Assembly: GCF_001854245.1 (NCBI RefSeq)
Contig: NZ_CP015381.1
Location: 1 to 64,000 of the forward strand
Length of the DNA: 64,000 nucleotides
DNA from: Desulfococcus multivorans
GTDB lineage: Bacteria > Desulfobacterota > Desulfobacteria > Desulfobacterales > Desulfococcaceae
Reading direction: 5' to 3'
The notes below the pieces were generated by a model. It was given only the letters and a program-made list of their open reading frames with translations. It searched no databases and had not been told where the DNA came from. Positions 3,460-54,897 of this stretch are shown here, in pieces (position 1 is the stretch's first letter; every line of letters starts with the position of its first letter). The position numbers were made by a program, and so were the translations under genes.

Positions 3460-5259
3460 CTAGATACGAGTCAGCACGTGGGTGACCAAAAGGACGATGG
3501 CGATGCCGAGAAGGTTGACCAGATTGATGTTTAAACTTCCAATCGGGAGCGACAATGTCATCAATTGAACGATGTTTATGAAAAATCGGGTTTTATCGAC
3601 ATACCAGGCAAAGATAAGGCCGATCAGGGATATCCAGAACCATGCCAGCCAACTGATCTGGATGCAAAACCATTTGAACGGTCTGTTTTTGCCGGTTAAA
3701 GCGCCGGCGGATGTGCTGCTTTTCCGAAAATGTTCATGCCATTCCCGGATCATGTGAAAAATGAGCCAGGACCAGAGGGCGATGGAGAGACTGATACCCC
3801 AGGAGATCAGCCAGTAACTCGAAAAAGCCTGGTATCCCGACAAATTGATGATGAGCCCCCCCATCGGAATGAGGTATATGGTGATCATTGCGATTTGGGT
3901 CAGTCTTTTTACGGAAGTGGCAGAGACGGTTTTTGAAATTTTTTCATTGAGTTTATGATTGAATCCCACTGACCAGACAGCCAGGATCAAATAGAAAACG
4001 ATGTTGCAAATTGTGGAAATGATGCTGGTCCGGCCATATAACCAGACCAGAAATACGACGGCGAGGGTGAAATAACGGACGATGCGCATCAATAGACGAA
4101 GCCGGAGCGCCAGAGGCTCGGGAATCTTTTGTTGGACCGTCTGGTTCCAGAATGTGACGGCATCCAGACCCCATCGGGACCATAGCCAGACGAACACCAC
4201 GACGAATCCGATTCCCAGCGGCGCTATTGTAGCGTAGAGGTGCTTCACGAATGCAAAAAAATAGAGTACGACGGCCGTCCATCCCAGAGGAATGGAACGG
4301 CTCGCCATACGGAGCACCAGATGGCGGCGGGGGTAATGTCTGGCGAGTTCATTATCTTTATCCCATTGGATGATTTTGCGCTTGAGCTGGAACATGATGA
4401 CGAGGATTATAAGTGCGAAGAGGATTATCCCTGTGATGCGCAAACGTCCCTTGTCGAGGAGTGCCTGAACGTCATGGTTCAACTTCGAAATGATTCGGTC
4501 CGGAAGATCGCCTATATAATCGTCCAGGCGGGTGATGTCGAAGGCATCCAAACCCGGCTCACCGCGTTTGAAGAGATCTTCCTTCTTCTTTTTCGATATG
4601 GCGTTATCAAACGTGTCTTCCATGACGGAGAGCCGGTCATGAGCCGCTTTCAGCTTTTCTTCAGATGCTTCATATGTATCGACGATCTTCCGGAGCATTT
4701 CCTTTTCGGTATTGAGCAGGTCGTCAAGTGTCTCGATCCGTCGGATCAGCTTGACGGTGATCGGGGTATCGGACTTTCCTTCCCGAATCGTCGCGAGATT
4801 TTCTTGATTCAGAAGAATCTGTTCCTCCACCCTTGCGAGTTGCGTCTCCGCAGCTGTCCTTTCGTCACGGGCCTGAGCCATCATCTCGGACAGGTTCGTC
4901 ATCACGGCATCGCTGTCGCTTTTGGCCTGAAGGATGTCCTGAAGATCGGATGCCGGCTCGACAAGGAGGTTGGCATGGGCTGTTTGTTGGAGGGATGCGG
5001 CCCTCAGCAGGATATCGATCGTCTTTTTGTATCGATCGAGGGCGGTGAATCGTGCCTTCAACGCCTTGATTTCGTCTGCTTCCGTGGTCAGGGCGGTTTC
5101 CACCAGTTGCCGGATATTTTCGTAAGGCACGGCGACGGTTGCATCCGAGGATGAATGATCTTCCCCGGGTGCCCCTTGAGCCGAAAATCCAAAGCCCATC
5201 TCTAACAAAGATATAATGATCAGTCCGACGATGGTGACATACATCCTTTTACAGAGCAT
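3460..5259 (-). CDS. MscS-family (MscK/YjeP-like) channel, N-terminal part ending at an in-frame TAG
   Basis: A 599-residue N-terminal portion of a large MscS-type channel. The start at 5259 follows AGGAGGAACG. A signal peptide (about residues 1-30) precedes a periplasmic coiled-coil region (about 35-260, many Glu/Lys/Ala heptads), then about eight to ten membrane segments from residue 275 onward. It stops at TAG (3460-3462) within what should be the helix leading into the pore (VTHVLTRI-stop-PRIFQDK). The reading frame continues without shift into the pore domain. With the downstream part the full protein would be about 857 residues, normal for large MscS homologues. A recent nonsense mutation (from TGG or CAG) or a sequencing error is the simplest explanation. 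Confidence 0.85.
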   Translation of the reverse strand: MLCKRMYVTIVGLIIISLLEMGFGFSAQGAPGEDHSSSDATVAVPYENIRQLVETALTTEADEIKALKARFTALDRYKKTIDILLRAASLQQTAHANLLVEPASDLQDILQAKSDSDAVMTNLSEMMAQARDERTAAETQLARVEEQILLNQENLATIREGKSDTPITVKLIRRIETLDDLLNTEKEMLRKIVDTYEASEEKLKAAHDRLSVMEDTFDNAISKKKKEDLFKRGEPGLDAFDITRLDDYIGDLPDRIISKLNHDVQALLDKGRLRITGIILFALIILVIMFQLKRKIIQWDKDNELARHYPRRHLVLRMASRSIPLGWTAVVLYFFAFVKHLYATIAPLGIGFVVVFVWLWSRWGLDAVTFWNQTVQQKIPEPLALRLRLLMRIVRYFTLAVVFLVWLYGRTSIISTICNIVFYLILAVWSVGFNHKLNEKISKTVSATSVKRLTQIAMITIYLIPMGGLIINLSGYQAFSSYWLISWGISLSIALWSWLIFHMIREWHEHFRKSSTSAGALTGKNRPFKWFCIQISWLAWFWISLIGLIFAWYVDKTRFFINIVQLMTLSLPIGSLNINLVNLLGIAIVLLVTHVLTRI

Positions 5260-7377: not shown

Positions 7378-8448
7378 TCAGTTTCGGCGGCGGCCTTCGT
7401 TCGAAACGGGGTATGCGACGATTCTGTTGTCGAAGGTCTGTATATACCATTCGTTATGGCGTTTTTCAATCACATATTCGGGCAGAAGCGGAATCTTTCC
7501 GCCGCCCCCGGGCAAATCGATCATATACTGGGGTACGCACATACCCGATGTGTGCCCCCGAAGGGCCGACATGATGTCGAGTCCTTCGCGGACGGAGGTG
7601 CGGAAATGGCCGGTGCCCTTCACCAGATCCCCCTGGTGGATGTAGTAAGGTCTGACGCGGATGGCGAGGAGCTTTTGCATGAGGCGCCTCATCACGACGG
7701 GACTGTCGTTGACGCCTTTCAGCAGCACTGTCTGGCAGCCTAAGGGGATGCCCGCATCGGCGAGACGGGCACAGGCTTGCGTCGCGTTCGGCGTTATTTC
7801 CGCCGGGTGGTTGAACTGGATGTTGATGTAAAGCGGTGCGAAGGCCTTGAGTCGCCGGACAAGGGCTTCGGTGATCCGTTGGGGGAGGGTACAGGGGATT
7901 CGGGTATGGATCCGGAGAATTTCCACGTGAGGGATCCCCCGAAGCGGCTTTAAAATGTCTTCGATGAGATGGTCGTCCGAAAGCAGAAAGGGATCACCTC
8001 CCGACAGAATGACATCCCGAATAGCCGGGGTTTCCTGGATATAGGCGATCCCGTTGTCAACAGTGCCGGGTTTCATCGCGTTCGACTTTCCGACCTGTCG
8101 CTTCCGCATGCAGTGACGGCAGAAGAGGGCGCATTGGGAGGACACCAGGAAGACCACTCTGTCAGGATAGCGGTGGATCAGGCCGGGCACGGGCGACTGG
8201 GCTTCCTCCGCCAAAGGGTCGGCTTCGGGAAGGGTGTCTTCCAGTTCTGCCGGATCCGGAATTGCCTGTCGCCAGATGGGATCGCCGGGTTCGCGGATCA
8301 GGGAGAGAAAATAGGGATTGATCCGCATGGGGTATTGGTCGATAACGGGCAAAACGGTTTTTCGGGCGACGGGAAACCTGCGGCAGAGTTCATCGGCCGA
8401 GGTGACGCTTTCCGCGAGAAGATCCTGCCAGGGTCGATCGTTCATCAT
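7378..8448 (-). CDS. KamA-family radical SAM aminomutase (lysine 2,3-aminomutase-like)
   Basis: A 356-residue radical SAM/PLP protein. Cys106, Cys110 and Cys113 (CALFCRHC) form the [4Fe-4S]/SAM site. SGGDPFLL is typical of the family, and the PLP lysine lies in LPGGGGKIPLL. The two Asp residues that bind the substrate epsilon-amino group in clostridial lysine 2,3-aminomutase are conserved here (in YIHQGD and YMID), so a lysine-type substrate is likelier than glutamate. The family also contains EpmB, which makes beta-lysine for EF-P; the sequence around HRYPDRVVFLVSSQC is closer to the LAM branch. Its start overlaps the stop of the upstream transporter gene (ATGA), so they form an operon. It is about 60 residues shorter than clostridial LAM. 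Confidence 0.85.
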   Translation of the reverse strand: MMNDRPWQDLLAESVTSADELCRRFPVARKTVLPVIDQYPMRINPYFLSLIREPGDPIWRQAIPDPAELEDTLPEADPLAEEAQSPVPGLIHRYPDRVVFLVSSQCALFCRHCMRKRQVGKSNAMKPGTVDNGIAYIQETPAIRDVILSGGDPFLLSDDHLIEDILKPLRGIPHVEILRIHTRIPCTLPQRITEALVRRLKAFAPLYINIQFNHPAEITPNATQACARLADAGIPLGCQTVLLKGVNDSPVVMRRLMQKLLAIRVRPYYIHQGDLVKGTGHFRTSVREGLDIMSALRGHTSGMCVPQYMIDLPGGGGKIPLLPEYVIEKRHNEWYIQTFDNRIVAYPVSNEGRRRN

Positions 8449-9155
8449 GCCTGAGTGTTGAAAGGATTGAATCGGGTGTCGATGTCGTAGACATCGATCC
8501 CCTCCCGACGTTTGAGAAAATTGACGATGCCGTAAGTAAACGGCGTCATGAGCGCTTCATAGACCGACTTGACGAGCCATTGGGTGGCGACAGCGGTGAT
8601 GATGCCTGAAGGCGGGATCGTTCCTGCAAAGGCCAGGGTGATGAAAACGGTCGAATCGAGCCCCTGACCGACCAGTGTCGAGCCGATGGTCCGGGTCCAG
8701 AGCCAGCGTCCTCCGGTGGCGATCTTCATTTTGGCCAGAATATAGGCGTTGGTGAATTCCCCAACCAGGTAAGCGGCAAAGGAGGCCGCCAGCAGGCGGG
8801 GCGTATATCCCAGAATCCGGTCGTAGGCGGACTGGGCGTCCCAGAAGCCGGCTGCCGGCAGCGTACCCCCGATCCATATGGCCGCGACGGCGATCAGGTT
8901 GCAGCAGAACCCGAGCCAGATCACCCGGCGGGCCTGACGATATCCGTAGACTTCCGTCAGAATGTCGCCGACAATGTAGCTGACGGGAAAAATGATGACG
9001 GCTGCCGGCAGGATCCAACCTGCGAAGCTGATCAACTTGACGGCGATGATATTGGCAGTGATGAGAGCGGTGATAAAAACGGCGGTCGTCGCAATGAACC
9101 ATTGGGAATAAGAACCCTCAGCCGGTTTTTCCGGAAAGGGGTTGGCACTGGTCAT
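8445..9155 (-). CDS. YhhQ-family queuosine-precursor transporter
   Basis: A 236-residue inner-membrane protein with about six membrane segments and the family signatures VSYIVGDILTEVYGYRQARRVIW and GEFTNAYILAKMKI. YhhQ/QPTR proteins import preQ0/preQ1 for tRNA queuosine modification. The start at 9155 follows GAAGGAAG. Length and motif order match the family. It is the first gene of a two-gene operon with the KamA-family gene; no other queuosine gene lies in the window. A terminator-like hairpin sits between the presumed promoter and the start, suggesting attenuation. Confidence 0.88.
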   Translation of the reverse strand: MTSANPFPEKPAEGSYSQWFIATTAVFITALITANIIAVKLISFAGWILPAAVIIFPVSYIVGDILTEVYGYRQARRVIWLGFCCNLIAVAAIWIGGTLPAAGFWDAQSAYDRILGYTPRLLAASFAAYLVGEFTNAYILAKMKIATGGRWLWTRTIGSTLVGQGLDSTVFITLAFAGTIPPSGIITAVATQWLVKSVYEALMTPFTYGIVNFLKRREGIDVYDIDTRFNPFNTQA

Positions 9156-45694: not shown

Positions 45695-47023
45695 ATGGAA
45701 CATACGCCGGCCATCGCGGAGCGCTCGTCCGACCGTCAGGCACCTTCGTTTTTAGAGGAGGCGGACGACGAACCTCCTGATTCCTCCGAAGTCTTGAGAC
45801 ATCCCCAAGCATCCTCAACCCCACCCATGGGGAAAAGCGCCAAAAACGGTTTGATCGTGCGCTTTCCCGTCAGTCGAACAACCGCGACCAACCCGGTTTC
45901 ACGCATGTTCCGGAAGCGCTTTTTTCCCAAGGTATCCGGAAAACTCTGGAACGATTGGCACTGGCAGGTTGCCCATCGGATCCGCACCGCGGCGGAACTG
46001 ACCCGATATATCCCTCTGCTTTCGAAGGACGAGGAACAGGCGCTGTATCAGGCGGATATCCGTTTACCCCTTGCCGTTACACCCTATTACATGAGTCTGG
46101 TATCGCCTGCGGATCCGGATCAGGCCCTGCGTCGAACAGTAGTTCCGGTATATCGGGAACTGATCAGGACGCCCGGGGAGGCCGACGACCCCCTATCCGA
46201 GGAGGCTCAAAGCCCGGTCCCGGGACTGGTACACCGCTATCCGGACCGGGTGTTGCTCCTGGCCCTGGATTTCTGTTCGACCTATTGCCGCTATTGCACC
46301 CGTTCCCGGGTGGTGGGGCATGGGGCCCTGCATCCTACCCGAACCCGGCTTGAAAGGGCGTTGACCTATATCGAATCCAAACCGGAAATCCGAGACGTGC
46401 TCCTTTCGGGAGGAGACCCTTTTCTGCTGGGAGACGACCGGCTGGAATGGATTCTCTGCCGTCTTCATCGAATTCCCCATGTGGAAATCATTCGCATCGG
46501 CACCAAGGTGCCGGCTGTTTTGCCCCAGCGCATCACCCCCAAACTGGTCAAGATGTTGAAGCGGTATCACCCCCTGTGGATGAGTCTGCACTTTACGCAC
46601 CCGGACGAGTGTACCCCTGAATCTCAGCGGGCGTGTTCCCTTCTCGCCGATGCAGGGATTCCGCTGGGATCACAGACGGTGCTGCTGAAAGGCGTCAACG
46701 ATACCGTGGATATCATGAAAAATCTGGTGCATTGCTTGATGAAGATGCGGGTGCGCCCCTATTACCTGTATCAGTGCGACCCCATTTCCGGCTCTTCCCA
46801 TTTTCGGACGCCGGTGGAAACGGGCATGGAAATCATTCGGGGGCTCAGAGGTTTTACCTCCGGCTATGCCGTGCCCACCTATGTGGTGGATGCCCCGGCC
46901 GGCGGGGGGAAGATTCCCCTCATGCCCGATTATATCATCGGCCGGGAAGGTAGAAACCTGGTCATGAAGAACTATGAAGGCAACCGGTATCAGTATCCCA
47001 ACGCTTTTTGCGATCCGATATGA
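45695..47023 (+). CDS. Lysine 2,3-aminomutase-like KamA radical SAM protein with N-terminal extension
   Basis: A 442-residue KamA-family protein starting after ACAAGGAGAACATTC. Residues 1-75 are a low-complexity, acidic then basic extension absent from the paralogue at 7378-8448. The SAM cluster Cys are 194, 198 and 201 (CSTYCRYC). SGGDPFLLGDD and the PLP site APAGGGKIPL are present. Both Asp residues that bind the lysine epsilon-amino group in clostridial LAM are kept (YLYQCD and YVVD), so a lysine-like substrate giving a beta-amino acid is predicted. It heads the cluster with two ATP-grasp genes and a GNAT-deacetylase-GNAT gene. Confidence 0.88.
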   Translation: MEHTPAIAERSSDRQAPSFLEEADDEPPDSSEVLRHPQASSTPPMGKSAKNGLIVRFPVSRTTATNPVSRMFRKRFFPKVSGKLWNDWHWQVAHRIRTAAELTRYIPLLSKDEEQALYQADIRLPLAVTPYYMSLVSPADPDQALRRTVVPVYRELIRTPGEADDPLSEEAQSPVPGLVHRYPDRVLLLALDFCSTYCRYCTRSRVVGHGALHPTRTRLERALTYIESKPEIRDVLLSGGDPFLLGDDRLEWILCRLHRIPHVEIIRIGTKVPAVLPQRITPKLVKMLKRYHPLWMSLHFTHPDECTPESQRACSLLADAGIPLGSQTVLLKGVNDTVDIMKNLVHCLMKMRVRPYYLYQCDPISGSSHFRTPVETGMEIIRGLRGFTSGYAVPTYVVDAPAGGGKIPLMPDYIIGREGRNLVMKNYEGNRYQYPNAFCDPI

Positions 47024-47191
47024 TTTCAAAATGTTATTCAGGGGAGGCTCCGGATGTTCGAGAGGCGCTTTCCCTTTTTGTTTTCCCGATTCATCTGCCG
47101 GCGCCGGGAGAAGGTTTGTTGGATCACCAGGGCATGACGCTGACTGAAACCCGGACCCGGCATCAACTGTCGTATGAGGAGATTTTGCACA

Positions 47192-48190
47192 ATGACCATG
47201 ACTATCGGCCTGACCTACGACCTGCGGTCTGAGTATCTCGCCCAGGGCTATTCGGCGTTGGAGACGGCGGAGTTCGATCGGGACGACACTATCGCAGCCA
47301 TTGAAACGACCCTTCGGGAGCTGGGTCACCGAACCGAGCGTATCGGGAACGGGCGTCGGCTGGTCGAGGCCCTGGCAGGGGGGCGGCGCTGGGACCTGGT
47401 ATTCAATATCGCGGAAGGGCTCAACGGCATCGGCCGGGAGGCTCAGGTGCCGGCGATGCTGGATCTCTACGGGATTCCCTACACCTTTTCCGACCCCATG
47501 GTCATGAGCTTGACGCTGCACAAAGGGATGACCAAACATGTGATCCGGGACGCCGGTGTCCCCACCAGCGATTTTCTTGTTGCGGAGAGCGGGGCCGATG
47601 TCCGGAGGGTCGGCTTCATGCCGCCCTACTTTATCAAACCCGTGGCCGAAGGAACGGGCAAAGGCGTCAGCCCCGCCTCGATCATCCGGGACCGAAGCGC
47701 TCTCGTTCAAGCCTGTGAGGAGATGATCCAGGATTTCCGCCAGGCCGTCATCATCGAGCCGTACCTGCCCGGCCGAGAGTTCACCGTGGGTATTCTGGGA
47801 ACCGGCACCGTTGCGCGCATACTGGGAACTATGGAGGTGCACCTGAAAGATACGGCCGAGCCGGGAGTCTATTCCTATGTGAACAAGGAGGAGTGTGAGG
47901 CGCGTGTCGTCTACCGCCTGGTCCGGGCCCTGGATGATCCCGTGGTTGCCGAAGCCGAAGACGTGGCCCTTTCGGCCTGGCGGGTACTGGGGTGTCGGGA
48001 CGCGGGACGGATAGATATCCGTTGCGATGCCGGAGGGCGGCCGCTGTTCATCGAGGTCAATCCCCTGGCCGGCATTCATCCCCAACACTCGGATCTGCCC
48101 ATTATCTGCAATCAACTGGGCTTTTCCTACCGGAGACTGGTTCAGGCCATCGTCGAGTCGGCCGTTGTCCGGATACGGAAGCCGGGTTGA
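47192..48190 (+). CDS. ATP-grasp ligase, D-Ala-D-Ala ligase-like (first of two)
   Basis: A 332-residue ATP-grasp enzyme expected to join an amino acid carboxylate, via acyl phosphate, to an amine. DLVFNIAEGLNGIGREAQVPAMLDLYGIPYTFSDPMVMSLTLHKGMTKHV parallels the Ddl N-domain. YFIKPVAEGTGKGVSPAS is the nucleotide-binding loop, and GRIDIRCDAGGRPLFIEVNPLAGIHPQHSDLP holds the two Mg ligands (Asp, Glu, Asn). It starts MTMTIGLTYDLRSEYLAQGYS, unlike true Ddl. The start at 47192 has GAGGAG upstream; TGATG joins it to the next gene. Confidence 0.88.
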   Translation: MTMTIGLTYDLRSEYLAQGYSALETAEFDRDDTIAAIETTLRELGHRTERIGNGRRLVEALAGGRRWDLVFNIAEGLNGIGREAQVPAMLDLYGIPYTFSDPMVMSLTLHKGMTKHVIRDAGVPTSDFLVAESGADVRRVGFMPPYFIKPVAEGTGKGVSPASIIRDRSALVQACEEMIQDFRQAVIIEPYLPGREFTVGILGTGTVARILGTMEVHLKDTAEPGVYSYVNKEECEARVVYRLVRALDDPVVAEAEDVALSAWRVLGCRDAGRIDIRCDAGGRPLFIEVNPLAGIHPQHSDLPIICNQLGFSYRRLVQAIVESAVVRIRKPG

Positions 48191-49179
48191 TGCGGGTCGT
48201 CATTGTTCACGACAGTGTTTCGGCATCGGATCGCCCCGATGCGCTGGATGTGGTGGTCCAGGCCCGGGCCGTGGCCACAGCCCTCGAGGAACTGGGTCAT
48301 TCGGTCGAGATTCTTCCCTGCACGCTCGATCTTGCAGGCCTCTGCGACGCCCTGAGGTCCCGTCGGCCTGAAAGGGTTTTTAACCTGGTGGAATCCCTGG
48401 CCGGGCATGGACGCCTGATTCACCTGGTACCGTCATGTCTGGACGCTCTGGGCTATTCCTACACCGGCGCGAGAACGGCGCCGCTGTTCCTGTCCTCACA
48501 CAAGGTTTTAGCCAAGGATCGCTTGAAACGGTTCGGTCTGCCCACGGCCGAATGGGTGGGGCCCTGCCCCGGATCTCCCCCGCCTGAGCATACGAGCATA
48601 AAAGCAGGCGTCTGGATCATCAAGTCCGTCTGGGAGCATGCATCCATCGGTCTGGACGAGAACGGCCTGGTCGCCGTGTCGGACATCCGCGAATTATGGT
48701 CTTTACTGGAAGCGCGCGCGCCGGATCTTGGGAAACTCTGTTTTGCCGAGTGCTACATCGAGGGGCGCGAGTTCAACCTCTCCCTTCTGGCCCAACCGGG
48801 TGGACCGCGGGTATTGCCGCCCGCGGAGATCCGTTTCGAGGGGTATCCCGTCGGAAAGGCGCGGATCGTCGACTACCGCGCCAAGTGGGATGCCGCGTCC
48901 TTTGAATATCATCATACGCCTCGGGGCTTTGATTTTGGCCCCGAGGATGCCGGGCTTCTGGCCGAGCTTCAGGACCTGGCCCGGAATGCCTGGGCCGCTT
49001 TCGGACTATCGGGTTATGCCCGGGTGGATTTTCGGGTGGACGAAAACGGGCAGCCCTGGATTCTGGAAATCAACGCCAATCCCTGTCTGTCGCCGGACGC
49101 CGGTTTTGCAGCGGCCCTGGACCGGGCCGGAATTTCCTATACCGAGGCCGTCGGGTATATCCTGGCGGACGTGGTTTAG
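48190..49179 (+). CDS. ATP-grasp ligase, D-Ala-D-Ala ligase-like (second)
   Basis: A 329-residue paralogue of the preceding protein but well diverged. FNLVESLAGHGRLIHLVPSCLDALGYSYTGARTAPLFLSSHKVLAKDRL again mirrors the Ddl N-domain. WIIKSVWEHASIGLDENGLV is the ATP loop, and GYARVDFRVDENGQPWILEINANPCLSPDAGF gives the Mg-binding Asp, Glu and Asn. Arg-Asp-Tyr in RIVDYRAKWD may be in substrate contact. Its ATG overlaps the previous TGA. Two different ligases in a row suggest two successive condensations or one for each end of a substrate. Confidence 0.88.
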   Translation: MRVVIVHDSVSASDRPDALDVVVQARAVATALEELGHSVEILPCTLDLAGLCDALRSRRPERVFNLVESLAGHGRLIHLVPSCLDALGYSYTGARTAPLFLSSHKVLAKDRLKRFGLPTAEWVGPCPGSPPPEHTSIKAGVWIIKSVWEHASIGLDENGLVAVSDIRELWSLLEARAPDLGKLCFAECYIEGREFNLSLLAQPGGPRVLPPAEIRFEGYPVGKARIVDYRAKWDAASFEYHHTPRGFDFGPEDAGLLAELQDLARNAWAAFGLSGYARVDFRVDENGQPWILEINANPCLSPDAGFAAALDRAGISYTEAVGYILADVV

Positions 49180-49276
49180 GCTGAAGACGGAAGGGGTGGG
49201 CTTCGGAAAAACGGCATGCTTATCCCCCTTCGTCTTTCAGCCGCTTTCCGGTCAACATCGCGAAAATCGAAAGATG
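49179..49276. repeat. GGCTGAAGACGG inverted repeat joined to a palindromic-element right arm
   Basis: GGCTGAAGACGGAAGGGG (49179-49196) and CCCCTTCGTCTTTCAGCC (49225-49242) form a near-perfect hairpin like that at 12424-12520. It is followed by TCCGGTCAACATCGCG and AAAATCGAAAGATGAG, the right part of the common element. The right arm ends 13 bases before the next start codon. Confidence 0.75.
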
Positions 49277-49289
49277 AGAAGTGACAACC

Positions 49290-51542
49290 ATGCTGCGCAT
49301 TCGACGCGTTTATGACGACACCTTGCCGGTAAATCGGGAAATCATCCGACAGGTCAAAGAGATCCTGCGGACCCGTTTCCCGGCAGCGCCCCGGGAGGAC
49401 ATCGATCAACTCGGTGAAAAACTCCGAAATCCCTTCAAACAGCGCTTTCGGAGCGTCCTTTTCGTCGCCCAGACCCTGAAAGGCCGGGTTCAAGGGTTTG
49501 CGCTTTTACTGCACGAGCCGGAGATCGGATTCACCTTTCTGGACTGGATCGCCATGGCCGGCGGGAAGGCCGGCAGCGGCATCGGCGGGGCTCTTTATGA
49601 CAGGGTTCGGCAGGAATCTCTGGCGTTGGCGGTTAAGGGGCTGTTTTTCGAATGTCTGCCCGACGCCCCGGACCGTTGTCCCGATACGGCGCTCCTCAAG
49701 GAGAATCAGGATCGACTTCGCTTTTATGAACAATATGGCGCCCGTCCCATTGTCGACACGGCTTATGAATCTCCCGTCAATGCGGGGGATACCTGCATGC
49801 CCCATCTTGTCTATGACGGTCTGGAAGCCCAGCGGCCGTTGCGCAGGAGCTTTGCCCGGAAGGTGGTCCGGGCCGTTCTGGAGCGTAAATATGCCGCTCT
49901 GTGTCCGGCCGACTACGTGGAGCGGGTGGTGGCTTCCTTCAGGGATGATCCGGTGGCGCTGCGGGAATACCGGTATCTCAAGCCCGAGGCCGCAAGAACC
50001 CGCGTCGATATTCGAACCATGGAGCAGATTCCGCTGATCGTCAACGATCGCCACGACATTCACCATGTGCATGATCGGGGCTATGTGGAGGCTCCGGTTC
50101 GGGTCCGGAGCATCCTGGCCGAACTGGAGAAGAGCGGGCGTTTCACCCTGATCAAGCCCCAAGCCTTTCCCGACAAGCACATCCTGGCTGTCCATGATTC
50201 CGACCTCTTCGGTTATCTCCGGCGGGCCTGTGCCGAGGTGCCCGAGGGAAAATCCGTTTATCCCTATATTTTCCCCATCCGCAACAAGGCCCGCCCGCCT
50301 AAGGAGCCGTCGGTGCTGGCGGGCTATTACTGCATCGACACGTTTACACCTGTCAATCGAAACGCCTACCCCGCGGCGCGGCGGGGCGTGGACTGCGTCC
50401 TGACGGCGGTCCGGGAAATTCTGCGCGGTCATCGCCTGGCCTACGCTCTGGTGCGGCCCCCGGGTCATCACGCCGAGCGGCAGGCCTTCGGCGGCTTCTG
50501 CTATTTCAACAACACCGCCGTTGCAGCGCAGTATCTCTGCGCTTACGGTAAGGTGGCTATCCTTGATATCGACTACCATCACGGTAACGGACAGCAGGAC
50601 ATCTTTTATCAGCGGAACGATGTGCTGACCCTCTCCATCCATGGTCACCCCAGTTTTGCCTACCCCTATTTCAGCGGATTTGCAGAGGAACAGGGGGACG
50701 GTGACGGCGAAGGCTTCAACCTCAATCTGCCGCTTCCGGAAGCTGTTGACGGCCCTGTCTATCGGCGCACCCTTGAAAAAGCCGTCACCCGGATCCGGGA
50801 TTTCAACCCTCAATTCCTGGTGGTGGCCCTGGGGCTGGATACGGCCAAGGGAGATCCCACCGGAACCTGGTCGCTCCGAGTGAAGGATTTCGAGGAGAAC
50901 GGCCGCATCATTGGAGCCATGGGGTTCCCGACAGTCGTTATCCAGGAAGGAGGATACCGAAATCGCACCCTCGGCAGGAACGCCATGGGATTCTTCAAAG
51001 GCCTGATCGAGGCGCACCACCACTGGGGCCGAAACCGGCAGGAGCCCCGGGAGCGGCTTCATGGGGTCGGTTTCCGTGAAGTTATAGAGCCCCCGGACGT
51101 GGAGCGGGTGCGTCGATTGGTGGATATCACCGGTTTCTTCTCGGCCGAAGAGGTGGCGATCGCCGCTGAACTGGTTCAGGAGCGACTTGAGAAGGGACCC
51201 GACAGCGGCTATGAATTTGTTATGGGCGACCATTACGGGCGCCTGGCCGGGTATACCTGCTTCGGCCGGATTCCCGGTACGACGGCCAGTTTTGATCTCT
51301 ACTGGATCGCCGTCCATCCGGAGTTCCAGGGCCGGGGCCTGGGACGGCGTCTGCTCCAGGAGTCCGAAAGACGAATCAAGGCGGTCGGCGGGGCGCGCAT
51401 CTATGTCGACACCTCTCAACGGTCTCAGTACGCCGGCACCCGGGCGTTCTATGAAAGCTGCGGATACCGACTCGAGACCGTGCTGGCCGATTTTTACAGT
51501 CCCGGAGACGGGAAGGCCATATACTGCAAAGTCATCGGTTGA
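49290..51542 (+). CDS. GNAT-histone-deacetylase-like-GNAT trifunctional protein
   Basis: A 750-residue fusion. Residues about 1-185 are a GNAT acetyltransferase-like domain (AMAGGKAGSGIGGALYDRVR is the acetyl-CoA loop, though not the classical Q/RxxGxG/A). About 250-590 is an arginase/deacetylase fold of the acetylpolyamine amidohydrolase/HDAC class II group: RPPGHHAERQAFGGFCYFNN (active-site His pair near residue 390), DIDYHHGNGQQD (Zn-binding Asp and His) and VIQEGGY. About 600-750 is a canonical GNAT (IAVHPEFQGRGLGRRLLQESERR). Joining an amide deacetylase to acetyltransferases suggests reversible N-acetylation of one small amine. Start ATG 49290 preferred over GTG 49281. Confidence 0.9.
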   Translation: MLRIRRVYDDTLPVNREIIRQVKEILRTRFPAAPREDIDQLGEKLRNPFKQRFRSVLFVAQTLKGRVQGFALLLHEPEIGFTFLDWIAMAGGKAGSGIGGALYDRVRQESLALAVKGLFFECLPDAPDRCPDTALLKENQDRLRFYEQYGARPIVDTAYESPVNAGDTCMPHLVYDGLEAQRPLRRSFARKVVRAVLERKYAALCPADYVERVVASFRDDPVALREYRYLKPEAARTRVDIRTMEQIPLIVNDRHDIHHVHDRGYVEAPVRVRSILAELEKSGRFTLIKPQAFPDKHILAVHDSDLFGYLRRACAEVPEGKSVYPYIFPIRNKARPPKEPSVLAGYYCIDTFTPVNRNAYPAARRGVDCVLTAVREILRGHRLAYALVRPPGHHAERQAFGGFCYFNNTAVAAQYLCAYGKVAILDIDYHHGNGQQDIFYQRNDVLTLSIHGHPSFAYPYFSGFAEEQGDGDGEGFNLNLPLPEAVDGPVYRRTLEKAVTRIRDFNPQFLVVALGLDTAKGDPTGTWSLRVKDFEENGRIIGAMGFPTVVIQEGGYRNRTLGRNAMGFFKGLIEAHHHWGRNRQEPRERLHGVGFREVIEPPDVERVRRLVDITGFFSAEEVAIAAELVQERLEKGPDSGYEFVMGDHYGRLAGYTCFGRIPGTTASFDLYWIAVHPEFQGRGLGRRLLQESERRIKAVGGARIYVDTSQRSQYAGTRAFYESCGYRLETVLADFYSPGDGKAIYCKVIG

Positions 51543-51609: not shown

Positions 51610-52009
51610 TAGGAAATTCTTCCGGTGATAAATTTTTCCTGACACGTGGAAAAAACTCCGACACCCTCCCCATCCGATATCCCATTTCCCATCCATGGGT
51701 TGTGTCAATAAAACAAGCTTTTTCAAAATATTGTGATCCTGTCTTTCGGATCCTGCTGGTATGGAAATTGCTCCATGTGAGACGGCTATTCAATGAGTTT
51801 CTCTGCAGCCTTCCGAGCTGCGCAGGTATCTGATGCCGGCCCGTAAACTTGTGGGTCCGGCGGCCCTCATCGGATCTCCGCCCAATGTCCAGGCCTGCGG
51901 CTCGCGCTGTTTCAGATCGCCGATACGGATCTCCATGAAGAATGCGGCCGCCCCGGCCTCTTGTGGCACCAGGCCCTGGTATACGGATGGTATCCAGAAA
52001 GGAGAAAAA

Positions 52010-52912
52010 ATGGAGCAACGGATAAAGGTTCTCATGGTGGATGATGAGGCCCAGTTTCGGGCGACGACATCCAGGATATTGAACAAGAAAGGCTTTGCAA
52101 CCACCATTGCCGGCAGCGGTGAGGAGGCGATCGGGATTCTGGAGGAGCACCCTCAGGACGTGATCATTCTCGACATCAAGATGCCCGGCATGGACGGACA
52201 CGAGGCTCTGAGCGAAATCAGGAGAATACGCCCGGAAACCCAGGTGATCATGCTCACCGGTCACGGAGCCGGGGATTCCGCCAAAGCATCCCTCGGAAAG
52301 GGCGCTTTCGACTATCTCAGCAAGCCGTGCGACATCGATCTTCTGGCCTTGAAAATCAAAGAAGCGTTTAAGGCGTCCCACAAGGATTTCAAAAAAGAGG
52401 AAAAGAACGCCGGCAACATCATGATCCATATCGAGGATTACACCACCATCCGGCCGGAGCAGACGGTAAGGGAAGCCATTCAGGCCCTCATGCGCTCCTT
52501 CGAAGGGTTGATTTCCTCGAGTCGTGTCATGGAAACCGGGCATCGTTCCCTTCTGGTCCGCGGTCCCGGTCAGGATGTGATCGGCATCATCAGCATCCTG
52601 GACCTCCTCGAGGCGGTTCGACCGGGCTATCTGAGCGCGGCGAAGCCCTCCATGGCCGACAGCATCCAGTATTCGCGGATGTTCTGGACCGGTCTGTTTT
52701 CAAGCCAGGTCAAGGCCCTGGCCGATAAATCCGTAGCGGAGGTCATGTCCGATACTCCGCCGTGCATGGATGAGGATACCAACCTGATGGAGCTGGCCGA
52801 CTTCATGTACACCCATCAGGTCAGGCGGGTGCTCATCACCCGTGCGGACAGGGTCGTCGGCGTGGTTCGTGAGCAGGAGCTGTTTTTTGAAATGGCTCAT
52901 ATCATTTTTTAA
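52010..52912 (+). CDS. Response regulator receiver protein with CBS-domain pair
   Basis: A 300-residue protein. The receiver domain is residues 5-125 with Asp11/Asp12 (MVDDE), phospho-acceptor Asp55 (VIILDIKMPGMDG), Thr in MLTGHG and Lys in YLSKPCD. Residues about 140-300 hold two CBS motifs (IEDYTTIRPEQTVREAIQALM ... GIISILDLLEAV and VAEVMSDTPPCMDEDTNLMELADFMYTHQVRRVLITRADRVVGVV), which usually bind adenine nucleotides. There is no DNA-binding domain, so output is probably by protein contact. The start at 52010 follows GAAAGGAGAAAAA. It is 47 bases before an SLC13 transporter gene, a pairing that recurs in deltaproteobacteria as I recall; regulation of transport is the likely role. Confidence 0.9.
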   Translation: MEQRIKVLMVDDEAQFRATTSRILNKKGFATTIAGSGEEAIGILEEHPQDVIILDIKMPGMDGHEALSEIRRIRPETQVIMLTGHGAGDSAKASLGKGAFDYLSKPCDIDLLALKIKEAFKASHKDFKKEEKNAGNIMIHIEDYTTIRPEQTVREAIQALMRSFEGLISSSRVMETGHRSLLVRGPGQDVIGIISILDLLEAVRPGYLSAAKPSMADSIQYSRMFWTGLFSSQVKALADKSVAEVMSDTPPCMDEDTNLMELADFMYTHQVRRVLITRADRVVGVVREQELFFEMAHIIF

Positions 52913-52959: not shown

Positions 52960-54897
52960 ATGAATCCATCAATAAAATCCGGTGACGCCCGAACCGATCA
53001 TGATCTTGCGTCATCCCACGCTGTGGATGCACCCGTGACCCGAAAGAGCGCCATCAGGAAAAAGAAAGCTTCCGGCTATGACAAGTATGTTGATTGGAAG
53101 CTGTTTATCATCCCTGTGGTGTTGCTCTTCGGCATTTTGATCATGCCGACGCCATACAGCATGAAAGACGTGGGTACGGAATACAAGGTCGGCCCCAAAG
53201 CGGTGACCAACTTCCTCGCCAAGGCGCTTTTTAACCAGGAAACGCCTTATCTCGAACAGTGGCAGCTCCTTACGGTTCAGATCATGGACCAGAACATGCG
53301 GATGGGCGCCCTGGGCAAGGACCGCTTCCTGAAAAGAGACGCCAAGTGGCTCAGGCAGAACAAGATCGCCTCGGACAAGGTCAATCTGGCGCAGGCCATG
53401 GCCTGGGTCAGCGACAATGTTCCGGATGAACGGTTTCGCGGACTCATGAAAAGTGCGCTGGATCTTCGCAGGGACAACCTCAAATACGAAACCCTGACGG
53501 GAGATGACAAGGCAGCCGCCGATACCGGCGCCTGGCACATCCAGGTCGCCATCGCCATGGGCGCCTTCGTGGTCTTCTGTTTTCTGACGGAGTGCATCCC
53601 GCTTCCCGCCGTCTCCTTCTGCACCGGTCTTCTGCTGGTCTTCACCGGCGTGGTCACCCGCTCCGAAGTGGCCCAGCTCTACTGGGATGACGCCGTCTGG
53701 TTCATCATGGGCAGCCTCATGTTCGCGGCCGCCTTCGTCAAGACCGGGGTGGACAAGCGGGTCTGCCTGGCCATGTTCAAGAAACTCGCGGTTCCCAACG
53801 TGAAGATGATCAGCATGATTTTCTTTCTGATCATCTCACCGCTGGCGGCCGTCATCTCGGACCACGCATTGGCGGCCATGTTCCTCCCCATCGCCATGCT
53901 GCTCTATCAGAACAGTCTGACCCAGGAAATCCCGGAGGACCCCGAGCTGGGCAAAATGCTGATGATTTCCATCGCCATGGCCTGCAATATCGGTGGGCCC
54001 GGCGCCCCGTCGGGCGGTGCTCGCAACGTCATCCTGATGACCTATCTGAGCGACATGTTCGGCATGGATATCGGCTATTTTCAGTGGATCACCTACTGTG
54101 CGCCCTTTCTCGTCGTCATGATCCCGGCCACCTGGCTGCTGGTCAACTGGCAGTTCAAGCCCCGCATTCATTCTCTGGCGCCGGCCATGGACCAACTCAG
54201 GAAAGAGATCGACAAGATGGGCGGCTGGAGCCGGAACCAGATCAGTGCCCTCATCATCTTCGTCATCATGGTCTTCGGCTGGTTCACGGAGAAAACCTTC
54301 TATGAAATGGGGATCTTACCCATTCGATTGGGCCTGGGCGTCCTGGCCATGGCCGGCGCGGTAGCCTACCTTATGGCCGGCATCGTGAACTGGCGGGATT
54401 ACCAGGAAAAGGTGGACTGGGGCGTGGTCTGGCTCTACGCCGGCGCCATCATCTTCGGCCGCACCCTGGACGGCACCGGTGCAGCCTATTGGCTGGCCCG
54501 GAGCGTCATGGACCTGCTCGCGCCCCTGGGCATGAATTCAGGACTGCCGCTTCTGGCCATATCCAACGGGATCACGGCCGTTGTCACCAACCTCATGGCG
54601 GACGGACCGGCCGCGGCGGCCGTGGGGCCCATCACGCTGAACATGGCGGGGCTCGCCCACCCGGGCACGGCCTACCTGCCCTTCATGGCCATGTCCACGG
54701 CCATCGCCTCTTCTTTTGCATACTGCCTGATTATCGGCACGCCGCCCAACGCCATCGTCTATGCCAGCGGTTACCTCGAACCCAAGGACTTTCTGCGGGT
54801 CGGCATCCCGCTCTGGTTCCTGGCCAACATCGTTCTGCTGCTTCTGACCGCGGTGTATTGGGTCGTCCGGGGATTCGGGGCACTGCCGAACTTCTGA
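52960..54897 (+). CDS. SLC13/DASS-family sodium-coupled anion transporter
   Basis: A 645-residue permease, larger than the usual 450-500 because of an N-terminal extension of about 190 residues with one membrane helix (WKLFIIPVVLLFGILIMP) and a soluble region with YLEQWQLLTVQIMDQN. The transport core has about eleven helices plus re-entrant loops. SDHALAAMFLPIAM and GGPGAPSGGARN resemble the first SNT-type site, and LMADGPAAAAVGPITL the second half; GTPPNAIVYASGYL is the conserved C-terminal motif. Substrates in the family are sulfate or dicarboxylates. The start follows AAGGAGGAGGG. Translated after the CBS response regulator. Confidence 0.92.
   Translation: MNPSIKSGDARTDHDLASSHAVDAPVTRKSAIRKKKASGYDKYVDWKLFIIPVVLLFGILIMPTPYSMKDVGTEYKVGPKAVTNFLAKALFNQETPYLEQWQLLTVQIMDQNMRMGALGKDRFLKRDAKWLRQNKIASDKVNLAQAMAWVSDNVPDERFRGLMKSALDLRRDNLKYETLTGDDKAAADTGAWHIQVAIAMGAFVVFCFLTECIPLPAVSFCTGLLLVFTGVVTRSEVAQLYWDDAVWFIMGSLMFAAAFVKTGVDKRVCLAMFKKLAVPNVKMISMIFFLIISPLAAVISDHALAAMFLPIAMLLYQNSLTQEIPEDPELGKMLMISIAMACNIGGPGAPSGGARNVILMTYLSDMFGMDIGYFQWITYCAPFLVVMIPATWLLVNWQFKPRIHSLAPAMDQLRKEIDKMGGWSRNQISALIIFVIMVFGWFTEKTFYEMGILPIRLGLGVLAMAGAVAYLMAGIVNWRDYQEKVDWGVVWLYAGAIIFGRTLDGTGAAYWLARSVMDLLAPLGMNSGLPLLAISNGITAVVTNLMADGPAAAAVGPITLNMAGLAHPGTAYLPFMAMSTAIASSFAYCLIIGTPPNAIVYASGYLEPKDFLRVGIPLWFLANIVLLLLTAVYWVVRGFGALPNF

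What the first reader, a model, noticed from the sequence alone, without database searches (positions are those of the whole stretch)
45695..51542. KamA, two ATP-grasp ligases and a GNAT-deacetylase-GNAT fusion form an undescribed-looking pathway
A lysine-2,3-aminomutase-like enzyme should give a beta-amino acid (beta-lysine if the conserved Asp pair reads true). Two different D-Ala-D-Ala-ligase-like enzymes could join it to one or two partners, and the last protein both adds and removes acetyl groups. N-acetyl-beta-lysine is a known osmolyte made by an aminomutase and a GNAT; this cluster adds ligases and a deacetylase, suggesting a conjugate whose acetylation is reversible. The first two ligases overlap by one base, which supports coupled synthesis.
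Basis: inference. Interest (0 to 1): 0.8.

Follow-up and report, generated by a model that had tools for sequence, protein, structure and literature searches.

The report
Conserved beta-lysine peptide pathway genes
Four neighbouring bacterial genes, kept together in many distantly related bacteria, look like an assembly line that turns lysine into beta-lysine, attaches it to one or two unknown partners and caps the product with an acetyl group, but the molecule itself has not been identified here.

Summary
In detail: KamA (45695-47023), two different Ddl-like ATP-grasp ligases AG1 and AG2 (47192-48190, 48190-49179, one base shared) and a GNAT-deacetylase-GNAT fusion (49290-51542) lie on one strand. 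KamA, AG1, AG2 and the last GNAT lie together in 39 of 65 examined loci, 38 in this order, over several phyla. In 192 genomes of the class, 55 of 63 AG1 genes lie 17-757 bp behind this KamA type. Neighbours are fused in other genomes. All 57 cluster KamA rows keep residues aligned with lysine-2,3-aminomutase R134, D293 and D330. The ligases are probably not D-Ala-D-Ala ligases; the genome has a separate Ddl. The GNAT-deacetylase module is optional (15 of 65 loci). Best reading: an acetylated beta-lysine conjugate built in the order KamA, AG1, AG2, GNAT. Product, partners and the osmolyte role are inferred. The rows listed by ten searches of an open-licence library named no such gene set; an ATP-grasp survey recalled as possible prior art was not held.

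The parts
45695..47023 (+). KamA-family radical SAM aminomutase (lysine-2,3-aminomutase-like)
   Evidence: Pfam and NCBIfam; aligned with 2a5h; lysine-site residues
47192..48190 (+). AG1, Ddl-like ATP-grasp ligase with a conserved Asp where Ddl has Leu282
48190..49179 (+). AG2, second Ddl-like ATP-grasp ligase with an invariant Trp where Ddl has Tyr216
49290..51542 (+). GNATn-HDAC-GNATc fusion protein (GTG at 49281 is an alternative start)
49290..49829 (+). N-terminal GNAT domain (GNATn), divergent
50085..50999 (+). histone-deacetylase / acetylpolyamine-amidohydrolase-like domain, catalytic residues kept
51081..51539 (+). C-terminal GNAT domain (GNATc), the core acetyltransferase; closest solved structure 2r7h

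Best explanation
The genes encode a self-contained pathway for a small N-acetylated conjugate of beta-lysine. KamA turns L-lysine into beta-lysine. AG1 joins beta-lysine to a first partner by ATP-driven amide formation. AG2 adds a second partner. GNATc caps an amine with acetyl. Where present, the GNATn-HDAC module, here fused to GNATc, can remove and re-add an acetyl group, so the product's charge could be reset. As no transporter recurs beside it, the product is probably a cytoplasmic solute; a compatible solute is the likeliest role. Shown: the gene set, its conservation, its fusions, kept catalytic residues, the lysine-type site. Inferred: every reaction, the order, the product and the role.
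For: KamA+AG1+AG2+GNATc lie together in 39 of 65 loci, 38 in this order, across several phyla. In 192 class genomes cluster-type KamA (over 590 bits) is in 69, AG1 (over 380 bits) in 62, both in 59; 55 of 63 AG1 genes lie downstream of that KamA on the same strand with gaps of 17-757 bp, median 92. Fusions, counted in 65 loci: KamA=AG1 in 2 (one genus), AG2=GNATc in 9, HDAC=GNATc in 7; these link neighbours and suggest the order. Cluster KamA rows fall in several separate places of the tree (6 label changes, at least 5 forced by starred branches), among them families f92/f93 in one clade with this genome's second KamA, so an aminomutase is kept or re-recruited. R134/D293/D330 equivalents in 57 of 57. 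AG1 has Asp at the Ddl Leu282 position in 50 of 51 main rows (one gap), which would fit a cationic acceptor. GNATc matches 2r7h by sequence, GNATn by predicted fold, and the HDAC catalytic residues are kept. Nearest solved deacetylases by sequence are acetylpolyamine amidohydrolases. No flanking family in more than 4 of 110 scanned proteins.
Against: No product or substrate is known. The Asp pair is also in all 18 other KamA rows compared, so it says lysine-type only. Five class genomes have KamA-AG2-GNATc without AG1 beside them (L064-L068), L085 has only KamA-AG1, and L024 shows KamA-AG1 followed by 1.4 kb without AG2 or GNATc, so both ligases are not always in the cluster. L052, L053, L090 and the f62 loci L078-L080 show no GNATc nearby. 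No salt-linked regulation found; hosts were not shown to be halophiles; AblB is not avoided.
Confidence: 0.5

Rival explanations
1. A beta-lysine-containing stress cofactor (for example a low-molecular-weight thiol or redox buffer) rather than a bulk osmolyte: two ligases add amino acids, the GNAT caps, the deacetylase recycles, as in mycothiol-type logic.
For: Ligase-ligase-GNAT plus deacetylase logic; several hosts bear names of anaerobic groups such as Desulfosarcina, Desulfotignum and Bacteroidales; no recurrent transporter. The mycothiol comparison is recalled.
Against: No flanking family recurs in more than 4 of 110 proteins, so no thiol-related partner is seen; nothing shows cysteine as a partner.
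Confidence: 0.12
2. A secreted peptide natural product or metal chelator built on beta-lysine.
For: Ddl-like ATP-grasp ligases and beta-amino acids occur in natural-product pathways (recalled); the patchy distribution (62 of 192 class genomes) would fit.
Against: No recurrent export or uptake gene among 110 flanking proteins (MFS in 4); the module keeps one compact composition over phyla.
Confidence: 0.1
3. KamA acts on another diamino acid (ornithine or a lysine derivative such as acetyl-lysine), so the conjugate is not a beta-lysine one.
For: Below the cut-offs of the curated aminomutase equivalogs: lysine 484.6 of 525.4, glutamate 421.1 of 650, arginine 374.6 of 600 bits.
Against: Best equivalog score and only solved relative are lysine 2,3-aminomutase; lysine-site residues kept.
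Confidence: 0.18
4. Ordinary N-epsilon-acetyl-beta-lysine osmolyte genes (ablAB) with unrelated ligases next door.
For: KamA plus GNAT is the abl recipe (PMC1224877, passages).
Against: GNATc is not AblB by these models (no TIGR03827 listed for the fusion protein; no match in the genome); AG1/AG2 linkage and fusions are too consistent; the KamA of L099, which has AblB next to it, lies apart from the cluster rows in the tree.
Confidence: 0.08

Closest known systems
ablA-ablB N-epsilon-acetyl-beta-lysine pathway of methanogens and some bacteria
   Same: Lysine 2,3-aminomutase followed by a GNAT acetyltransferase; beta-lysine as intermediate
   Different: Two added ATP-grasp ligases, another GNAT family, optional GNAT-HDAC module; KamA below the AblA cut-off
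N-acetylglutaminylglutamine amide (NAGGN) osmolyte pathway
   Same: Logic of an N-acetylated small peptide solute made with an ATP-grasp ligase and a GNAT (pathway recalled; solute named in PMC1224877, passages)
   Different: Here a radical SAM aminomutase and two Ddl-type ligases; the asparagine-synthetase-like partner of the NAGGN pathway (recalled) is not among the four genes
D-Ala-D-Ala ligase (Ddl) family
   Same: AG1 has the Ddl fold (Z 33.0, rmsd 2.5 over 295 residues to 8evz); ATP-site lysines kept (roles recalled)
   Different: Far below Ddl cut-offs; Ddl Tyr216 and Leu282 replaced; the genome has its own Ddl
Acetylpolyamine amidohydrolase (6phr, 3q9b)
   Same: Closest solved deacetylases by sequence; catalytic residues kept
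   Different: Fused between two GNATs; Glu106 and Glu117 of 3q9b align with Ser344 and Phe355

Membership tests
AblA (lysine 2,3-aminomutase equivalog, TIGR03820) | curated score cut-off 525.4 bits | tested here: not met
   484.6 bits
Lysine-type KamA enzymes | CX3CX2C cluster motif, R134, D293 and D330 equivalents (roles of the three residues recalled) | tested here: met
   57 of 57 cluster rows; alignment to 2a5h
ablAB pathway | AblB acetyltransferase (TIGR03827) in the genome | tested here: not met
   no match in G000
EpmB (EF-P lysylation) | TIGR03821 cut-off 369.3 bits | tested here: not met
   239 bits for the cluster KamA
D-Ala-D-Ala ligase | Ddl fold with ATP site | tested here: met
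   AG1 model Z 33.0 to 8evz; AG2 by sequence only, 56.1 bits to 8evx
D-Ala-D-Ala ligase | curated cut-off TIGR01205, 245.65 bits | tested here: not met
   AG1 118.2, AG2 71.3 bits; own Ddl 314.4
D-Ala-D-Ala ligase | second-substrate site Tyr216, Ser281, Leu282 (E. coli numbers; roles recalled) | tested here: not met
   AG1: Glu in 44 of 51, Ser kept in 50 of 51, Asp in 50 of 51; AG2: Trp in 58 of 58, Ala in 46 of 58, Gly in 56 of 58
Acetylpolyamine amidohydrolase | HDAC catalytic residues (His-His, Asp-x-His, Asp, Tyr; roles recalled) | tested here: met
   H396, H397, D431, H433, D525, Y559 invariant in 12 of 12 rows
Acetylpolyamine amidohydrolase | acidic gorge residues Glu106 and Glu117 for polyamine binding (roles recalled) | tested here: not met
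   aligned with Ser344 and Phe355; Phe355 invariant in 12 of 12 rows
NAGGN synthesis (TIGR03103/TIGR03104, names recalled) | match to the GNAT/ATP-grasp synthetase model | tested here: inconclusive
   not listed for KamA, AG2 or the fusion; for AG1 only 25 of 36 families were shown
beta-lysine conjugate synthesis | enzyme activity and product | not testable with these tools
   needs assays and metabolite analysis

The most novel reading that the evidence does not exclude
A widespread, so far unnamed class of small N-acetylated beta-lysine peptides in bacteria, made by aminomutase, two Ddl-derived ligases and a GNAT in linear order, and in some lineages switched between acetylated and free forms by one polypeptide that holds both acetyltransferases and the deacetylase.
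Probability: 0.45. Interest if true: 0.78.

Novelty: new variant of a known kind. Interest (0 to 1): 0.62.

Why it matters
If true, about a third of the sampled genomes of this class (62 of 192) carry a pathway for a metabolite that I could not find described, and automatic annotation by best match would file its genes as D-alanine ligases and an aminomutase. It would extend beta-amino-acid chemistry from single amino acids to conjugates, add a case of Ddl-type ligases used outside the cell wall, and give a defined four-gene cassette that can be moved into E. coli and tested directly.

Tried and rejected
Canonical D-Ala-D-Ala ligase role rejected: pocket residues differ and the genome has its own Ddl. 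AblB identity of GNATc rejected. The second KamA of the window (7378-8448) was considered as a partner and set aside: it is nearly 40 kb away and groups in the tree with three solo rows and the f92/f93 cluster rows. It scores 422 bits to the AblA and 231.4 to the EpmB model, both below cut-off, so its own role is open, although the genome has an EpmA match over the cut-off. Mutual exclusion of AblB and the cluster: not found. Riboswitch link to Na+ or c-di-AMP, known for ablA of Dehalobacter (PMC9337991, passages): no such hit at gathering scores in the window or in 20 loci. Recurrent neighbours: 110 of 143 flanking ORFs from 38 loci scanned (proteins over 700 aa and some short ORFs left out), no family in more than 4. 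Two c-di-AMP cyclase (DAC) neighbours were seen there, too few to mean anything. Trans-replacement of AG1: of the 10 class genomes with cluster-type KamA but no strong AG1, 9 have a weaker AG1-like gene elsewhere; the five lowest-scoring of those were opened and belong to a distinct Ddl-like family with Trp at the Tyr216 position and without Asp301, so I do not claim that they replace AG1. Against that idea too: G008 has a tandem AG1-like protein but no cluster-type KamA. Plasmid spread: 20 records, all below 60% identity; the 10 listed are at about 30%, and the two opened have unrelated neighbours. Class of the Bacteroidota genome of L026: 1 of 198 genomes, the centre itself, so the cluster is rare there. 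Literature: searches; the listed rows name no such gene set, but four lists were cut (20 of 31, 20 of 87, 15 of 41, 15 of 34 shown), the library holds open-licence papers only, and a 2009 survey of ATP-grasp ligases (Iyer and colleagues, recalled) that might mention it was not held.
Full report
What is there. The window is the first 64 kb of a single-contig 4.46 Mb genome. Between 45695 and 51542 four genes run on the plus strand. KamA (45695-47023) has Radical_SAM and LAM_C domains. AG1 (47192-48190) and AG2 (48190-49179) both have the Ddl C-terminal domain, are related to each other (27% identity, hhalign probability 100) and share one base at their junction. The last gene (49290-51542) encodes GNATn-HDAC-GNATc. 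Pfam sees only the last two domains in the whole window protein; the first is a GNAT too: 15 of 15 rows, window included, match Acetyltransf_1 at E up to 0.1 (best 2.4e-11; the window row alone 0.022) and the predicted structure (mean pLDDT 88.2) matches GNAT structures, best 2r7h at E 6.7e-8. 2r7h, a protein from Desulfovibrio (title), is also the closest solved relative of GNATc by sequence profile (185.9 bits).

Is it one unit? A scan of one genome per species found 35 loci with an AG1 relative. KamA, AG1, AG2 and GNATc are all present in 39 of 65, in this order in 38 (L021 is rotated). Many of the rest are cut by contig ends (for example L006, L010, L012, L029, L031, L039). Departures that contig ends do not explain, or not wholly: KamA-AG2-GNATc without AG1 in L064-L068, with a 68-residue AG1 remnant in L066; KamA-AG1 only in L085; KamA-AG1 and then 1.4 kb without AG2 or GNATc in L024, whose genome shows no AG2; KamA-AG1-AG2 without GNATc in L052, L053 and in the family-f62 loci L078-L080, where a gene that reads by eye like a response regulator lies between AG1 and KamA; AG1-AG2 without KamA or GNATc in L090; L034, where AG2 is gone and only a GNATc remnant is detectable; L036, with two proteins without Pfam match and a second AG1-like gene in place of AG2 and GNATc.

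Statistics in an unchosen sample. In 192 genomes of the class, drawn evenly by the tool, cluster-type KamA (over 590 bits; the next hit is 552.8) is in 69 genomes, AG1 (over 380 bits) in 62, both in 59. Of 63 AG1 genes, 55 lie downstream of that KamA on the same strand; my window was 6 kb, the actual gaps are 17-757 bp, median 92. The 8 others are in genomes without such a KamA (G009, G138, G191) or have it on another contig (G108, G113 second copy, G120, G156, G159); the second G113 copy does have a KamA end beside it at the contig edge (L069). In 297 genomes of the phylum 78 have AG1 at E up to 1e-80 and 100 have KamA at E up to 1e-150; I did not compute adjacency there, but the two f82 and three f93 loci that I opened show KamA, AG1, AG2 and GNATc side by side.

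Fusions and modules. Same-ORF pairs: KamA=AG1 in L050 and L051 (one genus); AG2=GNATc in L013, L015, L022, L037, L064, L065, L066, L081, L091; HDAC=GNATc in L005, L008, L010, L011, L017, L067, L069 and the window. GNATn and HDAC are in one ORF in all 14 loci that show both. HDAC is present in 15 of 65 loci: fused to GNATc (7); as a separate gene before AG1 in L025-L029 and L033 (Bacteroidota) and L081 (7); before a separate GNATc in L019 (1). So the three-domain protein is a core acetyltransferase with an optional acetyl-editing module attached. Fusions join neighbours in the order KamA, AG1, AG2, GNATc, which is why I propose that order for the reactions (inference).

KamA. It aligns over 362 residues with lysine 2,3-aminomutase 2a5h. 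The residues aligned with its R134, D293 and D330, known to bind substrate carboxylate and the epsilon-amino group (recalled), are R218, D377 and D414, identical in 57 of 57 cluster rows and in 18 of 18 other KamA rows; I compared no glutamate or arginine aminomutase sequence. It is below the cut-offs of the lysine, glutamate and arginine equivalogs. In a tree of 75 KamA rows one fully supported clade holds 44 cluster rows and one solo row; other cluster rows fall elsewhere, among them f92/f93 rows in a clade with this genome's second KamA. Thus different KamA lineages have been joined to the same ligases, or the KamA was exchanged.

Ligases. AG1 has the Ddl fold (pLDDT 92; Z 33.0, rmsd 2.5, 295 residues). 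The genome has another, canonical Ddl (314.4 bits, over cut-off). Aligned with that Ddl and with E. coli DdlB, both keep the two lysines of the ATP site (roles recalled). At the second-substrate site (E. coli numbers, roles recalled) Tyr216 is Glu in 44 of 51 AG1 rows and Trp in 58 of 58 AG2 rows; Leu282 is Asp in 50 of 51 AG1 rows (one gap) and Gly in 56 of 58 AG2 rows (two gaps). An added Asp in AG1 would suit an amine-bearing acceptor such as beta-lysine (inference).

Deacetylase. Its closest solved relatives by sequence are acetylpolyamine amidohydrolases (6phr, 248.5 bits). H396, H397, D431, H433, D525 and Y559 (catalytic by recall) are invariant in 12 of 12 rows, so it should be active. 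Glu106 and Glu117 of 3q9b, recalled as polyamine-binding, align with Ser344 and Phe355, so the substrate is probably another acetylated amine.

Role. Beta-amino acids, and a dipeptide with masked charges, are known compatible solutes (PMC1224877, passages), and ablA of Dehalobacter is under a Na+ and c-di-AMP riboswitch pair (PMC9337991, passages). Pelobacter carbinolicus was proposed to make acetyl-beta-lysine with ablAB (PMC3543383, passages). For the present cluster I found no direct salt link: no Rfam hit at gathering scores in the window, three unrelated riboswitches (one SAM, two cobalamin) in 20 loci, no recurrent flanking family, no avoidance of AblB. The lack of a recurrent transporter beside the genes favours an internal solute or cofactor over a secreted product.

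Verdict. The chemistry is a reasoned prediction. Novelty: known enzyme kinds in a combination for which the listed rows of ten searches of an open-licence library show no description; prior mention in a survey that was not held cannot be excluded.

Noticed in passing
window 7378-8448 (-): A second KamA-family gene, below the AblA and EpmB cut-offs, overlapping the end of an upstream ORF (8445-9155 -). The genome has an EpmA match over its cut-off, so a role in EF-P lysylation is possible but untested.
   Followed up: partly
window 52007-52912 (+): A response-regulator receiver domain fused to CBS domains, directly upstream of a DASS-type anion symporter gene (52960-54897).
   Followed up: no
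L066 (G002) near 4589-4801: A 68-residue remnant of AG1 between KamA and an intact AG2=GNATc fusion, suggesting loss of AG1 there.
   Followed up: partly
L034 after 8970: In a Humidesulfovibrio MAG the cluster has no AG2, and only a remnant of GNATc is detectable.
   Followed up: partly
L036 5452-7298 (+): In a Spirochaetales MAG two proteins of 402 and 202 aa without Pfam match at E up to 0.001 sit between AG1 and another AG1-like ligase behind KamA.
   Followed up: partly
L078-L080: In family f62 the order is AG1, then a gene that reads by eye like a response regulator (in L079 and L080 preceded by a further 361-362 aa protein), then KamA-AG2; no family search was run on these.
   Followed up: no
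L054-L056: In family f9 a single 673-676 aa protein holds two AG1-like ligases in tandem. In G010 the cluster-type KamA stands alone elsewhere (L063); G008 (L054) has no cluster-type KamA.
   Followed up: partly
L057-L062: A distinct Ddl-like family (Trp at the Tyr216 position, SPPG motif) in 6 opened loci; with an unopened seventh hit of like score (G079), the 7 genomes all have cluster-type KamA. Meaning unknown.
   Followed up: partly
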